From positions 5,770,884 through 5,834,883 of the forward strand of contig NC_049979.1 in the NCBI RefSeq assembly GCF_000003815.2: 64,000 nt of DNA. The letters run 5' to 3'. Numbering within the stretch: the first letter of the stretch is position 1; every line of letters starts with the position of its first letter. A model generated the notes under the pieces. That model was not told the origin of the DNA. It made no database searches and worked only from the letters and a program-made list of their open reading frames with translations. A program made the position numbers and the translations under genes. The DNA comes from Branchiostoma floridae (lineage: Eukaryota > Chordata > Leptocardii > Amphioxiformes > Branchiostomatidae). Below, in pieces: positions 4,920-22,718 of the stretch.

Positions 4920-7900
4920 CTAAATGGCTGCTGTACCACCAATGACAGAGAAAGCTGCCCAATAGGGAGGTGCTGATGTCTCTTCCTTGCGCAGCATGTG
5001 TAACATGGCACCTCTCATGGCCCGGGCTGCATCGCCGCTCCTCTGTGAGAGGTAAGGAATGGTTTTGTTATTTTCTTCATAATGTCCTGTTTCTGCCCAG
5101 ACTTAACAGGCTGAGGCTTTAACTAGCTGGTGAAGATCATCAAGACCGCAGAGAATCTAATTATGCTAAGTCGGGGGTTTAAGTTGGGTACGCCATAACN
5201 NNNNNNNNNNNNNNNNNNNNNNNNNNNNNNNNNNNNNNNNNNNNNNNNNNNNNNNNNNNNNNNNNNNNNNNNNNNNNNNNNNNNNNNNNNNNNNNNNNNN
5301 NNNNNNNNNNNNNNNNNNNNNNNNNNNNNNNNNNNNNNNNNNNNNNNNNNNNNNNNNNNNNNNNNNNNNNNNNNNNNNNNNNNNNNNNNNNNNNNNNNNN
5401 NNNNNNNNNNNNNNNNNNNNNNNNNNNNNNNNNNNNNNNNNNNNNNNNNNNNNNNNNNNNNNNNNNNNNNNNNNNNNNNNNNNNNNNNNNNNNNNNNNNN
5501 NNNNNNNNNNNNNNNNNNNNNNNNNNNNNNNNNNNNNNNNNNNNNNNNNNNNNNNNNNNNNNNNNNNNNNNNNNNNNNNNNNNNNNNNNNNNNNNNNNNN
5601 NNNNNNNNNNNNNNNNNNNNNNNNNNNNNNNNNNNNNNNNNNNNNNNNNNNNNNNNNNNNNNNNNNNNNNNNNNNNNNNNNNNNNNNNNNNNNNNNNNNN
5701 NNNNNNNNNNNNNNNNNNNNNNNNNNNNNNNNNNNNNNNNNNNNNNNNNNNNNNNNNNNNNNNNATAATCTATTGGACAATTTTCTTCATAATGTCCTGT
5801 TTCTGCCCAGACTTAACAGGCTGAGGCTTAACTAGCTGGTGAAGATCATCAAGACCGCAGAGAATCTACTGTGAATTAATGCATTTAAGTTCGCGGTGGT
5901 TTTAAGTTTGCGGTAGCGCCATAGACTAGTCAAAATTTGTAATGGAAAAAATGTTCGCAGTAAAGTAGCTACCAGGAAAACTGCAGACATAAAACCACCG
6001 CGAACATTTCTGCATTGACAGTACATGTATGTTGCCCCATATATGCTAATATGTGAACTGTTCCTTTATCATGTATATTTCCCATAGGTATGGAGTAGAT
6101 CAGTCCAGTAGGTTCTGTGGAGTGCCTTGTAATTACCTTGTAGCTGCTGTAGAAGTGCCTCATGAGTTTCCGAGTCTTCTTGTCAGGAATCCTCCATAAG
6201 GTCGCCACCACGTTTGCAGCCCCGGCCGCCAGAAAGGACCGGTACATCCCCAACACTCCGTCTCCTGCGAACAGTCATCCTCACCGTAAAGATACACCAG
6301 CAGTCCGAAACATAGCCCTAACACTAAGCCCCTAACCCCACACTAGCCCTAACACTAACCCCACCCTAGCCCTAACACTAACCCCTAACCCCACACTAGC
6401 CCTAACACTAACCGCACCCTAGCCCTAACACTAACCCTCTAACCCCACACTAGCCCTAACACTAACCCCACCCTAGCCCTAACACTAACCCCTAACCCCA
6501 CACTAGCCCTAACACTAACCCCACCCTAGCCCTAACACTAACCTCCTAACCCCACCCTAGCCCTGGGGTCTGCAATGAGATTGCTGTCAATCATCCTCAC
6601 CACAAGCCTCTGCAGGTACAATGTGTAAGGCTTTCCCACAGGAGAAGGAACAACTTTCAGACAATGGAAACTCATGCCATAGACAAGCAAGACATTTTCA
6701 TATTCCTTTGCACTTTGTGAAAGTGTACAGCTGACCTGTAACAGTGCCCAGTCCTGTGTTGCAGCAGCTCAGCACCACCAGCTCTGCAGACAGGTCCAGG
6801 CTGCGGATCTCCTCAGCAGTCAGTATGCCCTTGGACAGCACAATGTGGCCAGGCATGCTGTAGTTACCATCATGATGGTTATCACTGGCTCTGATGGCAT
6901 CTGCAGGCTGAGGAGGATGAGGATAAAAACCAGTTCAACAACCTCAGAAGTTTCACAACACATACATGATGTAGTGTGTACACTCGGTTACACTGGACAA
7001 ATGAAGACTCTTGGATATAGAACCAGCCTTTTTGGCAGGAGGACATCCCCAGCCATCTACATCAGGGCTCTACAACCATCCCTCAACATCGACTTTCTGC
7101 AACTTATNNNNNNNNNNNNNNNNNNNNNNNNNNNNNNNNNNNNNNNNNNNNNNNNNNNNNNNNNNNNNNNNNNNNNNNNNNNNNNNNNNNNNNNNNNNNN
7201 NNNNNNNGGGTTCCCGACCGCCAGCACGCTGGCAGTCGAACCGCAGGTCACCGTAGAACGCGTTATTCTCTGAAATACGGCTTACGCCGGGTCACTGACT
7301 GACCCCGCTGCATGGGTGTAAACTACAGCTTATTTTGCAACAAAGACACCTTAGATATACGTAATGTCTATACTTTTTCGTATCTACAGGATTTGCCCAG
7401 CACAGCCATGTGGATATTCATTGCATTGTAAAAGATCAGCCAACGTTGTGGCCCCTCGAAAAAAAGCAATTTTCGGTCTGTGTATTTGTGATTATCTTTT
7501 CTCCAGTTGGCCGGGGCACAATCAGTTTTGTCCACAGTCGGACAGTCCAGTTCCTCACCTTTACATTGATACCAAACTTGAAGGGTAGATTTTAGGAGAA
7601 ACGGTTTTGCCCCCAAATTAACTGCGAACATGCGCAAATCACAGTGGGGAAGTTTCAGTCTGGTTGTAGCTACCCAAGCACACTACCCTGCGGACGGACC
7701 CAATTTTTGTACATTTCGCATTGTGTCACAGACCCCATTTCTTGGTACAAGAATCTGAATGGGTGCGGCTGTCACATGCAATATAATAAGTGGCATGATG
7801 ATAATCAAACACACATAGACACAGAGTTTTAGTACAAAGTAAGAGTTTTTAAGATTCATCATATTTTTAGTCAATCTGTTTCGAACTCCTGGTCCGAACC

Positions 7901-10900
7901 TGGGTTCGAACGGTGGAACCCAGCCGGTACGTTCCATGTTCGTGCCGCGGGGGTCAGGCCTAATGTTGCAAGTTCAACCAGCATTTGGAAAAGTTGATAT
8001 AACTAACGGCTCAAGTCTTGCCGTCGCAAATAGATTTCGGGAAGCCCACCAAAATAAAACTAACATTATCCAGAAGCCAGAATAAGTAGGATTCATGTGC
8101 AAGCGTAATGATGTCAAAACATCATGGCTGAGTTTTGTAAAGCATAGTGAAAGATCAGTGTGTGCGGTTTCTCATTCGAAAAAAGACGCCGGGGAATTTG
8201 ACATGGCTGTAGTTTTTTTGGGGGCAAAACCGTTTCTCCTAAAATTTACCCTTCAAGTTTGGTATCAATGTAAAGGTGAGGAACTGGACTGTCCGACTGT
8301 GGACAAAACTGATTGTGTCCCGGCCAACTGGAGAAAAGATAATCACAAATACACAGACCGAAAATTGCTTTTTTTCGAGGGGCCACAACGTTGGCTGAAC
8401 TTTTGCAATGCAATAAATATCCACATGGCTGTGCTGGGCAAATCCTGTAGATGTGAAAAAGTATAAACATTATGTAGGTCTGAGGTCTTTTTGTTGCACA
8501 ACAGGCAGTTGTTTATACGCATGCAGCAGGGTCAAACCAGGACAAACTGCGTTCTGGCTTATGACCTGTCCAGAGAAGGCTGCGCAGAACGGATGCGCAT
8601 AGAGCTCTGCGGTTCGACTGCTGGTGTTCAGCTGGGAGCTCCGGTGGTTCTGCAGCTGCTGGTGGGACAGCTGCAGCACCTGCATGGACGGGGCGAGGGA
8701 GACGGCGTATTTCTCCACCAGGTGCGCTCCATCTGCATCCATCAGGGCACAGAATGGGACACTGAACAGGAAACCTGTGAAGGAAGAACAGCAGGTTTGA
8801 CGGCAGGTTTAACGGCAGCTATAGATCGATCCTACTGTCTTAAACCACCCCACCTCCTCTGCACTTATATTTCGTGCTACAAAAAAACCTTTTCACTTAC
8901 TGTCAATAAATGTTGGTGACATCAATTATATTACATGCACATAGCAAAAAAAAGAAGTGTTGATATCACGATAATCTGAGGCCTGAGCCTGACAGTATTC
9001 ACCATGAGGAATGAAGGTAATCTTGGGTGCTGCTTCCTGTCCAGCCTGAGTTGGGAGAAACTGGTCGACAGGTTTGATGAGGATGTCGTAGTCTGCACGC
9101 AGCTGTGTCTCCCACCGGTGTTCCCGAGTCTGCTGTGTGGACCTCACTTTCAGGGCAAGCACACGTTCCAGATCATCATCCTCAGAGTCGTCTGACGTGT
9201 CCTCACTGTCATCACCTTGGATTCCTTCTAACAAGTGAACAGCCAGATGAATTTTATGTCTTAAAACATGTGAATTGTTCATGTTCCTGAGACCAGATCA
9301 TCAGGCCAGGGCCCTTTGTTCTTCTGTTTGTGATGACGATCATAATACGCATGAAATTCAGAAGATACAGAAGATAACATTGAATCTATTACCTTAAATA
9401 TAATTAATGCTTATGATCAGGAGGCAGCATTTTAGGCAAGGATCTGTAGTAGTTGTAGTGTAGTAGTCACTACAGTAATTGTAGTAGCTTACTGTTTGTG
9501 TAGTTCCTGTAGTCCTGATGTAAGAGATACATCCATATGACTGCCCTGCCCCGTCAGAGTACAAAATTGTCATCATGTGCTTGTAACCTGTAAAGCACAC
9601 TGTCAGGTAATCACTCTCTTTCTTACCTGCATCCCCTACCGACAAGTCCCCCATGGACCGGAGCAGGGTGTCGTAGTACCCCTGGTCCAGCTCTGTCCTG
9701 TCCACCTGGACCGTGTCTCCCTCTAGTGGAGTCCTGGTGAAGTGCACCTCCTGCTCTCCTGGGTTCACCACCCAGGAGTACACCCACCTCTCACCCACGC
9801 TGTACGGACGCTGTTCGGTCACCACAGAGTAGAACACGATGGTGGTGTGCAGTTCTGCTGCCAGGGTTCTGATGTCTGCGATGCCCTTGATAACTGTGAC
9901 AGGCTCCTGTTCCGTTTGTTCGACCTTGGCGCTCATGAGATCTGCAAGGGCACGACCCCTGCCCTTCTCTGCCATGACCAGTGCATCCTGGGATTTCCCC
10001 TGGAGGACCAGGATGTGCAGGAGGATGTTGTAGGCGTCGACTTGGTCCTTCTCATTGTGTGCGATTCGTGAGGAATCCTCCGGACCGAGCTTTCCTCTGA
10101 TCCTCTCCAGGGTAACAACAGCATCCCGAATGGATCTTTCTGCCATCTCATAGTCCTGTCAGAAAAGCAAGGAAGATTAAACCAGCCACAATGTAGGTGA
10201 GTCTGATAAACAACAACACAGGTGGGTCTAATTAACAACAACACATGTGGACCTGACAAACAACAGCACAGGTGGGCCTAATTAACAGCAACACAGAGAT
10301 TATGACAGCCTTCTCTGTAGTTTTGGCAGCATGTTTGTAAGGTTTGGTTATGTGAATCACATCACAGTCAAAACACTTAAATGCCCCAAACCTTGTTGAA
10401 TAGATAGTCCAGAGCGAGCTCCCTCTGCATGATGGCCACCCCACCCACATCGTCCCTGCTGTCGGCATTACTCAGGTACATCTGGTGGTTCTCAATGGCT
10501 TCTTCATACCGGCCTGGAAGGTGGAAAGCCAAGACTTAACTCTGAAAACTACACATTTGAAATCAGCCACAATACTTAGTGTTAGGCGGTAATTTTATCA
10601 CAATCGTCTACTTTGGTTCTCTCCCTATACGTTACGTTCCTACCCTGATCCTTGTATGGCAGTATGCTGTGCCCATGTGCCTACCCAGATCCCTGTATGC
10701 TGTTCTCATGTGCCTACCCAGATCCCTGTATGCTGTGCCCAATTCTCTGTATGCTGTGCCCCTGTGCCTACCCAGATCCCTGTATGCTGTACCCACGTGC
10801 CTACCCAGATCCCTGTATGCTGTACCTATGTGCCTACCCAGATCCCTGTACGCTGTGCCCAGGTTCCTACCCAGATCCCTGTATGCTGTGCCCACTGCCT

Positions 10901-13900
10901 ACCCAGATCCCTATACACTGTGCCCAGGTTCCCATTTGCCTATCCAGATCCCTGTATGCTGTGCCCATGTGCCTACCCAGATCCCTGTATGCTGTGCCCA
11001 TGTGCCTACCAAGATCCCTGCATGTATGCTGTGCCTATATGCCTTCCCAGATCCCTGTATGCTGTGCCCATGTGCCTACCCAGATCCCTGTATGCTGTGC
11101 CCAGGTTTCCATGTGCCATGCCCTCCCCTGCAACATTGCCTGTGCTGTGGATCAGCTCGATGGTTTGTTTCAGCAGGACGACAGCCTGATCTGGCTGCTG
11201 CATCCCTACAAGCAAAAATACATGTATCAGATACATCTGTTATATGCACAAGCTGGACAAAAGTAGTTTTGAAAAATTACTTAATCATCAGGCATATTTA
11301 TTGTCACCTAAGTAGTTATTTTATCATCATGCAAGCACACTGATTGGAACCTACTAGTAGCTTGTATCCCACCACTGCCACCATGTTGTGGTTGGGTGTA
11401 ACTACGACCTAAACTATAACTGGATATTTATGGATGATGTACTGACCTGTGTAGACTTTCCCCAAACAGTTGAATGCCTTGGTACTGACCTGTGTAGACT
11501 TTCCCCAGACAGTTGCATGCCTTGCCATAGTACTGACCTGTGTAGACTTTCCCCAGACAGTTCAGTGCCTTGCCCTATATATGTGCATATACGTAATGTG
11601 TATCCCACCACTGCCACCATGTTGTAGTTGGGTGTAACAAGGGCTAGACTCTGAACTATGACTGGATGATTATATGATGTACTGACCTGTGTAGACTTTC
11701 CCCAGACAGTTGAGTGCCTTGCCCTGCATGCCTGGGTCACCCAGCCGCCTGGCCAGCAGCAGCTGCAGTGTAAGGTATACCAGAGCCTGCTGGTAGTCTG
11801 GAACAGGCTTCATGGAGTAGAAGGTGAACCCTTTGTTGAAGCAGGCTGTGCACAGACCACTCAGGTCACCTGGGAACAGGAACATTGAATGTGATGAAAT
11901 TAGGTGAGTTCATCACAATCATCATTTCTAGATGAAATCATGGACAATCAACATGTATAGGAATGAGATATTCTTGCGAGAGGACTTACAATTATTACAT
12001 TACATCAGTGGAAAAAGCGTTGTTTCTGTGATAATGTTTAACATATCTACATGTATGTGATATTCTTTCCCAAGATTCATAGACCAAGAGCCTTAGTAAT
12101 CAAAGAAACCACTAGTGTTCCCTCAGGCTGTCTCCCAGAATGTAGAATTTTTGTTTCTCCAAATCCTGGGAAGAGCATCTTCAGTTGGAGCAGCACTACC
12201 TTTCAGGAGGGGCATAAAATGGGGGTCATTATTATATAGAGATTAGGTGCCTCAAACATGTTTCAAAAGCCTGTACAAAAATGATTTTTTTTTAAATATT
12301 GCCCTGCTGCTGAAGCAAGGAAACACGCTGTCCTACAATGTTTGTGCCACTAGGCACTATACACAAGGAAAACAACAACAACAACAACCTCTCCGTAAAG
12401 CGAAGCTGTACTGTTTCTCCTGCTCCTGTAGTGCCTCTGCGGTGCGGCCCTCCGACCGGTACACGTTCCCCAGGTCTCCATAGCGACCAGCTGCCTGGAT
12501 CTCGTCTCCCAGGGCTGTTGCTATGGAAACAGCCTCCCTCAGGTGGTCCTTCGCAGGGCCCCAGTCCGCAGCGGACCTGAGGAGAAGGAAAAACAGCAAA
12601 CAGGAATCAGCTACACATTTTCAAATCTTGACCATGAACTCTTAAAATGGAAGTCTACAAATGTGTGATGAACACGACACTGACATGAACAGACGGATAT
12701 AACATATACGCTATTTTACTGCCCTCCTTATACCTGTAAGTGGTCCATAGGTATTACAGCAGCAGCCCCCTGTACTGCCTTCCCTGTTGTGATGCCTCAC
12801 CTGCAGTACCTCACCTGTAGTGACTCACCTGTAAGCATTCATCAGGTATTACAGCAGCAGTCCCCTGTACTGCAGTACTGCCTTACCTGTTGTACTCCCT
12901 CACCTATAGTACCTCATCTGTAGTGCCTCACCTGTACCATCTCACCTGTACTGCCTCACCTGTAGCACCTCGCCTGTAGCACCTCACCTGTAGTGCCTCA
13001 CCTGTACCATCTCACCTGTACTGCCTCACCTGTGGCACCCCACCTGTAGTGACTCACCTGTAAGCGTTCCCCAATTGTGTTGCAGGAGCAGCCCCTTTCT
13101 GTTCTGCCTCACCTGTACCTCATATATAGTGCCTTACCTGTGCTGCCTCACCTGTAGCACCTCACCTGTAGCACCTCACCTGTAAGCATTCCCCAGGTGT
13201 TGCAGGAGCAACCCCCTGCTGTACTGCCCCAAGTCCCTCTGCAGCAGGGGGAGGAAGGTGTCCTGTATAGCCATGTTCAGGTGCCCGCTGGCCAGTAGCA
13301 GGATACCCAGGTGGATATCAGCCAGGACTGCCGCATCCGCAGGGTCCATGGCAGGGTTTGTGTGGGTCGCTACATCCCATGTGAGGTCCGTGTGGGTCGC
13401 TACATCCCGTGTGAGGTCCGTGTGGGTTGCTACATCCAGTGTGAAGTCTGCGTGGGTCGCCACTTCCCGTGCCTGGCTGTAGAAATGCCGGGCCTCGTCC
13501 AGGAGTCCACAAACTCGATGAGCATCGCCAGCATCCAGGCAGGCCTGGGCAGAAAGGGTCCTGATTAGTGCTGTTTGCCAGATAAAGAAATGAAGACATT
13601 CATCAAGAAATGTCTCCACCTGAGGTGTGCTATTGTTGACGTGCAGTCTGTAACCCCTGAATAAACCACCAAGTGATACGAGATTTCTAACCATTTTGTA
13701 TTGTTACGGCAACAAATAAGATTAGGACTCGGGCGATGCTGAAGCTTTAATATACGAACTGATCTGCAGTCCATCTATGTTGGACACAATGAATTGAAAC
13801 CAACAAACGGGAAGGATGCCTCTCATATTTGCCATAAAATCCTCTTGGGTAAGGTCACCATACATCTTAAAAGTATAACGCTACTTCACCTTTATCTATA

Positions 13901-21200: not shown

Positions 21201-22718
21201 ATAATTGATGACCAAGGTGAAAGGTAAAGGTTTTTGTTCCTTTTCTCCAGAGAAGATGAGAGAAGAGAAGACTTGAAGGTGAAAGGTAAAGGTTTTTGTT
21301 CCTTTTCTCCAGAGAAGATGACAGAAGAGATGACCAAGGTGAAAGGTAAGGGTTTTTTCTTATAATGTTGCAATGTACACAGAAGCACTCTGTATGGCTG
21401 GTAAATAATAATGAATTTTGGGAACTTCAGATCAACAAGAATCCCTTTATGGTGATGGGCTGCCAGAGGTAATGGCCAGAAAGTAGATTATTCACATTTT
21501 TAAAGCTTTTGACATGAAGATATAAGCTGATAATTTAAGGAAAAGAAAAAAATAAGGATGTATACCTGAGAAAATTATATTTTTATTTTTTAAAGATTTT
21601 TAAAAGAGTCTCATGACATGAAAAACAAAATAATCTTTAAGAGGTCTAAAAGCTACAGATTTCCCTCCTCAGATCCGTACCGTGGAGGGGACCAGGTTGC
21701 CGGGGACGACACATCCAGCAGCGACTCCTCCAGTGATGATGAGGACGAGCCGTTCCGCAGTGACACGCCCCTAAACTGGTCGTCGGGGGCAACCGCTCTG
21801 CAGGGGGTCAGCCGGCAGGAGTTTGAGCAGGTGGAGGCAGAGATGGAGAAGGATGAGGAGAAACGAGTCATCATGATCTTACGTCTCGTAGCGAGGTAAC
21901 TAAATCCAGTCAGTTTCACAGCAACGCGGTCTGCCTAAACAACGCAAACGACTCTAATATGCAGAGTATATATTATTATTATTCTTCTTTATTTCAGGCA
22001 CTACAGGCCCATAACAATACATTCAATTAAAAACCGGGAGACATATATAATACAGAATGGGTACGACTGGATGGTGTTAATGGTATGTACAAAATGAAAG
22101 CATTAGTGCTTGTAGACCAGATCAACATAGTGTTGCCAGTATTTACAGAGAGAGGGCGATATGGGGCGACAAAGTTGTGTGACGCTCTGGAGACATTGTT
22201 TAATATAAACATTATGAATTTAAAAAACGCAGCAAGTTTTACGTATTCGCCAGTTATTTCGAGTTAGTCGCTGGTTTCAAGATCAAAGCAATTCTTGGCC
22301 GCCATGTTGGTTCACCCGTGCTAGGAGTCTGCAAGGGGAAGTTCTTGATGCCTTCCTTGTCTCCATAGAGGACAGGGCGATAAAACTATGGAAGCTGTTG
22401 GTTCCTAGATTACAGCATAGCGCAATTCTATCATTGTCAACTTATAAAACCTGTATACTAAGACTTAGTGTTTTTCAGTCTCAAATGCAAGCATAGGCGA
22501 TCCAACATGGCGGCCAAGAATTGCTTCAATCTTAAACCGGCGGACTGACACAAAATAACTAGTGAATACGTAAGACTTGCTGCAATTTTTAAATTCATAG
22601 ATATTTTGCCACTACTGACCTGATGTCTGGTTTCAGAACTGATGCCCCGACGGTACAAGTCTCCAGCGCTCCAGTCAAACCACTGATGTCCAAGCGGCCG
22701 AGGGCGATCCCAGACTAG
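17206..22718 (+). CDS. Death effector domain protein with C-terminal beta-rich domain (7 exons)
   Basis: Exons 17206-17491, 18626-18898, 19362-19448, 20158-20456, 20750-20948, 21673-21895 and 22637-22718 (TAG) agree in phase at all six junctions and give about 482 residues. Residues 10-90 look like a [61 protein letters not shown]. Exon 2 is a Pro/Gln/Ser-rich linker with PPVQCQSSL repeats. Residues of about 260-380 form a predicted beta-rich domain ([57 protein letters not shown]). Its IDGK...RL.P...LERP...F.F...GI..G..NGLV.V.F.PEK pattern resembles an uncharacterised domain found in bacteria, protists and some invertebrates. The C-terminus is acidic ([12 protein letters not shown]) with a basic end. 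DEDs mediate homotypic assembly in caspase-8 and innate signalling, so an adaptor role is inferred. No protease domain. The start is the first in-frame ATG. The donor after exon 4 (AAG|gtttag) is weak. Confidence 0.85.
17957..18034. repeat. Perfect 35-bp inverted repeat with 8-nt loop
   Basis: Arms 17957-17991 and 18000-18034 are exact reverse complements; the loop is gtattaat. The sequence is A+T-rich with ggagcttatttgcataattt in the arm. It lies in intron 1 of the DED gene. Possibly a very young palindromic element. Confidence 0.9.
18085..18412 (+). repeat. (CA)n-rich microsatellite
   Basis: CA repeats interrupted by ATA, AAA and TCA, in intron 1 of the DED gene. Long open frames on both strands are artefacts of the repeat. 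Confidence 0.95.
18725..18840 (+). repeat. Coding 27-bp minisatellite (PPVQCQSSL) in DED gene exon 2
   Basis: About four in-frame units of 27 bp encoding PPVQCQSSL or close variants, in the linker after the DED. Likely length-polymorphic. Confidence 0.85.
18940..19230 (+). repeat. (GGAT)n microsatellite
   Basis: Pure GGAT for about 130 bp, then degenerate GGAT/GAAT/GAAG, in intron 2 of the DED gene. Confidence 0.97.
19660..20137. mobile_element. Tc1/mariner-like MITE with CAGTCAAACCTGTC end (diverged)
   Basis: Begins tacagtcaaacctgtcctga and contains repeated aggacaggtggttgct blocks. The other end, ggacaggtttcacc, is degenerate. It is a longer relative of the copy at 26399-26580 and ends about 20 bp before the acceptor of DED-gene exon 4. 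Confidence 0.6.
20870..21360 (+). repeat. Minisatellite of exon end plus donor, DED gene exon 5
   Basis: Five to six units of about 61 bp: agaagatgagagaagagagg, accaaggtgaaag|gtaaagg, tttttgttccttttctcc. The first copy is the real end of exon 5 (20948) and its donor. The later copies lie in the intron and repeat both the exon-end codons ([11 protein letters not shown]) and the splice donor. Confidence 0.9.

What the first reader, a model, noticed from the sequence alone, without database searches (positions are those of the whole stretch)
7208..8774. A foldback transposon appears to have created an intron inside the CHAT domain
Seen directly: a 1,388 bp element (7233-8620) with ends CAGTCGAACCGCAG and its complement is flanked by CTGG/CTGG. 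On the gene strand the sequence reads ...CTGAACACCAG, element, CCAGCGTGCTGGCG.... Removing the element and one CCAG gives AAC ACC AGC GTG CTG GCG GTC GGG AAC, that is NTSVLAVGN, a seamless CHAT sequence with the usual spacing from SLAPS to VGNP. In the present allele the element offers a donor (8566/8565) and an acceptor (7270/7269). The mRNA would keep 55 + 37 nt of transposon plus the 4-nt duplication = 96 nt, exactly 32 codons with no stop. A 1,296 bp intron made wholly of transposon DNA results. Either this is a freshly made intron, or an insertion allele whose frame survives by chance.
Basis: partly seen in the sequence, partly recalled or inferred. Interest (0 to 1): 0.87.

Follow-up and report, generated by a model that had tools for sequence, protein, structure and literature searches.

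The report
Hairpin transposon inside a CHAT-gene exon
A jumping gene with long mirror-image arms has landed in the middle of a protein-coding exon, apparently in an amphioxus gene; the landing is clear, but the idea that the cell now removes it as a brand-new intron has little support beyond chance.

Summary
The element is real. A 1,388-bp insert (7233-8620) has perfect 14-nt terminal inverted repeats, a 4-bp CTGG duplication and 333-nt arms that are 92% complementary. It splits a coding exon of a CHAT gene on the minus strand; joining the flanks reads ...SSQLNTSVLAVGN. A 100-N gap (7108-7207) lies 25 nt beyond the element, so the rest of that exon is not assembled.
The "new intron" is arithmetically right (96 nt, in frame, no stop) but weakly supported. 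Both proposed splice sites score below the 6 donors and 4 acceptors placed in the same gene. An equally good element-internal, in-frame pair arises in 202 of 2000 shuffled elements and 299 of 2000 window chunks. Two in-frame pairs using exonic donors score higher. The predicted RNA hairpin (355 pairs) buries the proposed donor.
Most likely this is a recent, possibly polymorphic, disruptive insertion of a non-autonomous foldback DNA transposon. Transposon-made introns are a known kind (PMC9860276), and an amphioxus intron gain with a MITE has been reported (sentence in PMC5802833). The window's own genome could not be searched, so the empty site and further copies remain untested.

The parts
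7233..8620 (.). non-autonomous foldback-type DNA transposon, 1,388 bp
   Evidence: TIRs, duplication and arms; no ORF over 126 aa lies wholly inside it, four of its ORFs have no Pfam match above curated cut-off
7233..7246 (+). terminal inverted repeat CAGTCGAACCGCAG
8607..8620 (-). terminal inverted repeat, other end
7229..7232 (.). target-site duplication CTGG
8621..8624 (.). target-site duplication CTGG
7300..7632 (+). long inverted arm, 92% complementary to 8202-8534
   Evidence: gapped alignment out to the TIRs
8202..8534 (-). long inverted arm, partner of 7300-7632
7633..8201 (.). spacer between the arms, 569 bp
8621..8774 (-). 5' part of the interrupted CHAT exon (acceptor before 8774)
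   Evidence: CHAT match; acceptor score 8.86
7208..7232 (-). 3' part of the interrupted exon as far as assembled (second CCAG, then the rest of SVLAVGN-P)
7108..7207 (.). 100-N assembly gap; end of the exon and more CHAT coding missing
   Evidence: CHAT profile matched to position 86 before it and from 164 after it
9001..9147 (-). preceding CHAT exon (part shown), donor at 9002
6736..6907 (-). following CHAT exon with LVVLSCCNTG
6137..6264 (-). next CHAT exon GDGVLGMYRSFLAAGAANVVATLW
8470..8472 (-). in-frame stop if the element is transcribed and not spliced
   Evidence: ORF 8470-8808

Best explanation
A non-autonomous DNA transposon with long inverted arms was inserted recently, by a transposase supplied in trans, into the middle of a CHAT-coding exon and duplicated 4 bp of target. 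Shown: insertion anatomy and in-frame coding flanks. Inferred: that it is recent, and that the allele is disruptive. Unspliced, the reading frame runs 49 codons past NTS into the element and stops at 8472-8470, before the exon with LSCCNTG, and the transcript carries a predicted hairpin of about 355 pairs. Such an allele can persist as a polymorphic or hemizygous variant, or in a spare paralogue. Removal of the element from pre-mRNA at the proposed sites is possible but not the expected outcome.
For: Perfect TIRs, perfect duplication, 92% arms; flanks read through in frame, and the join raises the CHAT score slightly, from 45.7 to 48.0 bits. ORF 8470-8808 shows the early stop. The placed CHAT exons are otherwise open. 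The proposed splice sites score below 6 of 6 placed donors and 4 of 4 placed acceptors of the gene. Predicted hairpin -763 kcal/mol with 355 arm pairs; donor bases 8566-8561 nearly always paired (P unpaired 0.14 or less), acceptor AG mostly paired (0.27). In a lancelet genome paper 65-77% of large polymorphic indels were ascribed to recent TE insertions (PMC4284660, passage), and over a thousand genes show presence/absence variation in two lancelet species (PMC12373286, abstract).
Against: No transcript, no second haplotype, no orthologue and no second copy of the element were seen. The gene seems to use some weak sites: acceptor 6264 scores -0.03, the unplaced acceptor of the preceding exon has 0.64 as its best candidate, and the best donor candidate after the exon at 12576 is -0.82, close to the proposed -1.11.
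Confidence: 0.72

Rival explanations
1. One reading: splicing from 8566 to 7269 removes 1,296 nt of transposon and leaves a 32-codon insertion in the CHAT domain.
For: In frame without a stop, best of the 9 element-internal in-frame pairs; the hairpin puts both sites in one stem; introners with TSDs/TIRs, and one that carries both splice sites and adds codons, exist (PMC9860276, passages).
Against: Both sites weaker than every placed site of the gene; expected in 202/2000 shuffles and 299/2000 window chunks; donor buried in the predicted hairpin; 32 extra residues directly before VLAVGN; implied intron (1,296 nt) longer than any introner family median quoted (30-654 nt).
Confidence: 0.1
2. Partial rescue by other splicing: an exonic donor (8679 or 8718) to the element's acceptor 7269, or skipping of the whole exon.
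Against: They use the same weak acceptor and delete CHAT residues; skipping cannot be evaluated because the exon's end lies in the gap.
Confidence: 0.1
3. The locus is a spare or decaying paralogue, or the scaffold joins pieces of different haplotypes at the 100-N gap, so the insertion has no consequence for an expressed gene.
For: Gap 25 nt from the element; some 57-77 CHAT profile positions missing between the exon and the next one; inverted repeats and nearby tandem repeats are prone to misassembly.
Against: Matching CTGG on both sides and in-frame coding across the join point to one contiguous insertion; the placed CHAT exons are open.
Confidence: 0.08

Closest known systems
Non-autonomous TIR/foldback DNA transposons (MITE-like elements)
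   Same: Perfect short TIRs, short target duplication, long inverted arms, no recognisable transposase
   Different: Superfamily not assigned; no second copy seen (window only)
Introners (PMC9860276; abstract and passages)
   Same: Some families have TSDs and TIRs, and one carries both splice sites and adds codons to the mRNA
   Different: They are families of at least four similar introns per genome with family median lengths of 30-654 nt; here one copy, 1,296-nt implied intron, weak sites, no transcript. The words amphioxus, Branchiostoma and chordate do not occur in its main text
Amphioxus PRHOXNB intron with the MITE 'LanceletTn-2' (one sentence in PMC5802833; primary source not read)
   Same: An intron gain in amphioxus associated with a MITE
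   Different: Reported there as a gained intron; here splicing is only conjectured
Splicing of Tc1 in C. elegans and Ds in maize from pre-mRNA (recalled, from no call)
   Same: DNA transposons in exons partly removed by cryptic splice sites near their ends
   Different: Those were seen in transcripts

Membership tests
Non-autonomous foldback/TIR DNA transposon | terminal inverted repeats and long inverted arms | tested here: met
   14/14 TIR; 333-nt arms 92%
Non-autonomous foldback/TIR DNA transposon | target-site duplication and restorable empty site | tested here: met
   CTGG/CTGG; join reads in frame as CHAT. A real empty allele was not seen
Non-autonomous foldback/TIR DNA transposon | no own transposase | tested here: met
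   no ORF over 126 aa wholly inside (ORFs of at least 100 aa); 4 element ORFs, none above a Pfam cut-off; other frames not searched
Non-autonomous foldback/TIR DNA transposon | repeated in the genome | tested here: inconclusive
Non-autonomous foldback/TIR DNA transposon | superfamily by terminal 11 nt and TSD length (rule quoted in PMC4455052, passage) | not testable with these tools
   no library of eukaryotic transposons at hand
Introner | transposon-like ends (TSD and/or TIR) | tested here: met
   not all introner families have them
Introner | splice sites carried by the element or made by the duplication, of usable quality | tested here: inconclusive
   sites exist but score below the placed sites of the gene; 10-15% of controls do as well
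Introner | at least four similar introns in the genome | not testable with these tools
   The genome search unanswered
Introner | spliced from transcripts | not testable with these tools
   no RNA data
CHAT-domain gene | profile match across exons | tested here: met
   PF12770: 48.0 bits on the joined exons, 43.2 bits on 5969-6274
CHAT-domain gene | His/Cys catalytic pair (recalled) | tested here: inconclusive
   LSCCNTG present; the His part would fall in the unassembled stretch

The most novel reading that the evidence does not exclude
A foldback transposon becomes an intron at once, because its long RNA hairpin brings two weak cryptic splice sites near its ends together; the CHAT protein gains a 32-residue insertion, nearly all of it coded by the transposon.
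Probability: 0.08. Interest if true: 0.6.

Novelty: new member of a known kind. Interest (0 to 1): 0.3.

Why it matters
If transcripts showed clean removal, it would be a rare chordate intron caught at birth, with the donor element, duplication and deduced empty site all readable. As it stands it is a well-preserved transposon insertion in a coding exon, and a caution: an in-frame GT...AG inside a transposon is expected fairly often by chance.

Tried and rejected
Rejected: that the in-frame 96 nt is strong evidence. A first control allowed exonic donors and gave 415/1000 and 492/1000; two fair donors of the real exon inflate it, so I repeated it with element-internal sites only (202/2000 and 299/2000 with both scores reached; 442/2000 and 630/2000 by summed score). 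Rejected: a splice site made by the duplication. The acceptor at 7228 (CCAG|CGTG) scores better (-1.36), but with donor 8565 it would leave 55 nt, out of frame (arithmetic).

Led nowhere: Pfam on four of the element's ORFs (DUF702 and DUF1270 below their cut-offs); an arm motif in viral contigs, 0 matches; CHAT paralogues elsewhere in the window, best E-value 0.029; polyadenylation signals AATAAA/ATTAAA on the gene strand at 7000-8800, none; superfamily from the literature.

Limits: the splice matrices are recalled vertebrate-like frequencies, not trained on amphioxus. Of the yardstick sites, donors 13179, 11686 and 11079 and acceptor 11205 were placed by eye at exon ends, the others at the ends of CHAT matches; a seventh donor was looked for at 9582 and dropped because no GT lay within 2 nt. 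A later look at eight further exon edges gives as best candidates donors 7.02 (9626), 0.22 (10391) and -0.82 (12456) and acceptors 10.52, 7.32, 7.05, 5.71 and 0.64; taking the best candidate biases these upward. All lie above the proposed sites, the donor -0.82 only just.

Full report
The observation. Reading the window and its repeats confirms an insert at 7233-8620: perfect 14-nt inverted ends, CTGG on both sides, and arms of 333 nt at 92% complementarity. A gapped alignment of the two halves (360 identical of 447 columns) shows, by eye, nearly identical inner arms and divergent outer parts. The terminal 14-mer occurs exactly only at these two places; with up to 3 mismatches the window has 5 matches against 2.89 expected. 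The element has no second copy in the window. No ORF over 126 aa lies wholly inside it, and four of its ORFs show no Pfam family above cut-off.

The host gene. On the minus strand the flanks belong to a CHAT domain (PF12770), with a weak TPR match further upstream (TPR_2, 16.1 bits, below its cut-off of 27). Placed edges of CHAT exons: donor 9002, acceptor 8774, acceptor 6907, donor 6735, acceptor 6264, donor 6136. Joining the flanks minus one CCAG reads ...SLAPSMQVLQLSHQQLQNHRSSQLNTSVLAVGN. The CHAT score is 45.7 bits up to the insertion point, 48.0 with the join, 46.1 with the proposed 32 codons, and 45.8 with the unspliced reading; only six residues follow the join, so these small differences mean little by themselves. 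The duplication plus the in-frame join is the real evidence of an insertion into one exon.

7108-7207 is a run of 100 N, so the contig ends 25 nt beyond the element. The CHAT profile is matched to position 86 before the gap and from position 164 after it. As 20 residues at the start of the next exon lie outside that match, some 57-77 positions are missing. Whether the frame continues in the rest of the exon cannot be seen.

The intron claim. The arithmetic holds: 55 + 37 + 4 = 96 nt, no stop. But the donor CAG|GTCATA scores -1.11 and the acceptor -2.15 on recalled consensus matrices, at the 80.7th percentile of 4,698 GT and the 72.9th of 4,209 AG on the gene strand of the window. Six donors placed in the gene score 1.29 to 7.87 and four acceptors -0.03 to 8.86. 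Eight further exon edges, taking the best candidate at each, give donors from -0.82 to 7.02 and acceptors from 0.64 to 10.52, so the gene may use some weak sites. With exonic donors allowed, the element turned round would have 47 in-frame pairs, several of them better. The frame is thus a mild coincidence, not evidence of splicing.

RNA structure. The transcript 8640-7209 folds at -763 kcal/mol with 355 pairs between the two ends of the element. The donor bases 8566-8561 are paired with 7290-7295 (probability unpaired 0.14 or less), and the acceptor AG pairs with 8572-8573 (unpaired 0.27). This could bring the two sites together or hide them; for the donor, hiding is the plainer reading.

Most likely consequence. 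Unspliced, the reading frame stops at 8472-8470, 49 residues past NTS, before the exon with LSCCNTG. An insertion allele that disrupts a gene is ordinary in lancelets: 65-77% of large polymorphic indels were ascribed to recent TE insertions (PMC4284660, passage), and over a thousand genes vary by presence/absence in B. belcheri and B. floridae (PMC12373286, abstract).

What is known. Gozashti et al. 2022 (PMC9860276; abstract and passages) describe introners in 175 of 3,325 genomes, many families with TSDs or TIRs, including one in Aureococcus that carries both splice sites and adds 12 bp to the transcript. Among 835 animal and land-plant genomes they found introners in only two groups, both animals. 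A sentence in PMC5802833 reports an amphioxus intron gain (PRHOXNB) with a MITE inside. PMC3087553 (passages) proposes that mirage repeats can make new introns in amphioxus, another route than the one claimed here. I recall, without a call, Tc1 and Ds as exon insertions that are partly spliced out. So even the bold reading would be a further case of a known kind. The listings of my 10 literature searches show no title on this locus; that is not proof that nothing is in print.

Host identity. Three introns of this gene carry tandem arrays whose units repeat the exon end with its 5' splice site. Such 'mirage' minisatellites are described for amphioxus genes (PMC3087553, passages).

Verdict. Insertion confirmed; intron not supported beyond chance; most likely a recent disruptive insertion of a non-autonomous foldback transposon. 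RNA across the site would settle it.

Noticed in passing
12796-13184, 11439-11572 (further copy near 11690), 10662-11103, minus strand: Three introns of the same gene start with tandem arrays whose unit copies the exon end plus 5' splice site (14-, about 44- and 33-bp units); they look like amphioxus 'mirage' minisatellites (PMC3087553, passages). So many exon-end decoys in one gene are striking.
   Followed up: partly
7108-7207: 100-N gap next to the element hides the end of the exon and some 57-77 CHAT profile positions.
   Followed up: partly
6990-7107, plus strand: Frame reading ...RRTSPAIYIRALQPSLNIDFLQL right at the gap; by recall it resembles the GIY-YIG end of Penelope-like retroelements; Pfam gave no match to the short, partly mistyped piece.
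   Followed up: partly
6313-6564: Tandem array of CTAACCC/CTAACACTAACCCC units, telomere-like in look, between two exons of the CHAT gene.
   Followed up: no
22213-22322 and 22490-22599: A second, shorter foldback-like pair of inverted repeats (110 nt, 82%) elsewhere in the window (which lists 25 of 46 pairs).
   Followed up: no
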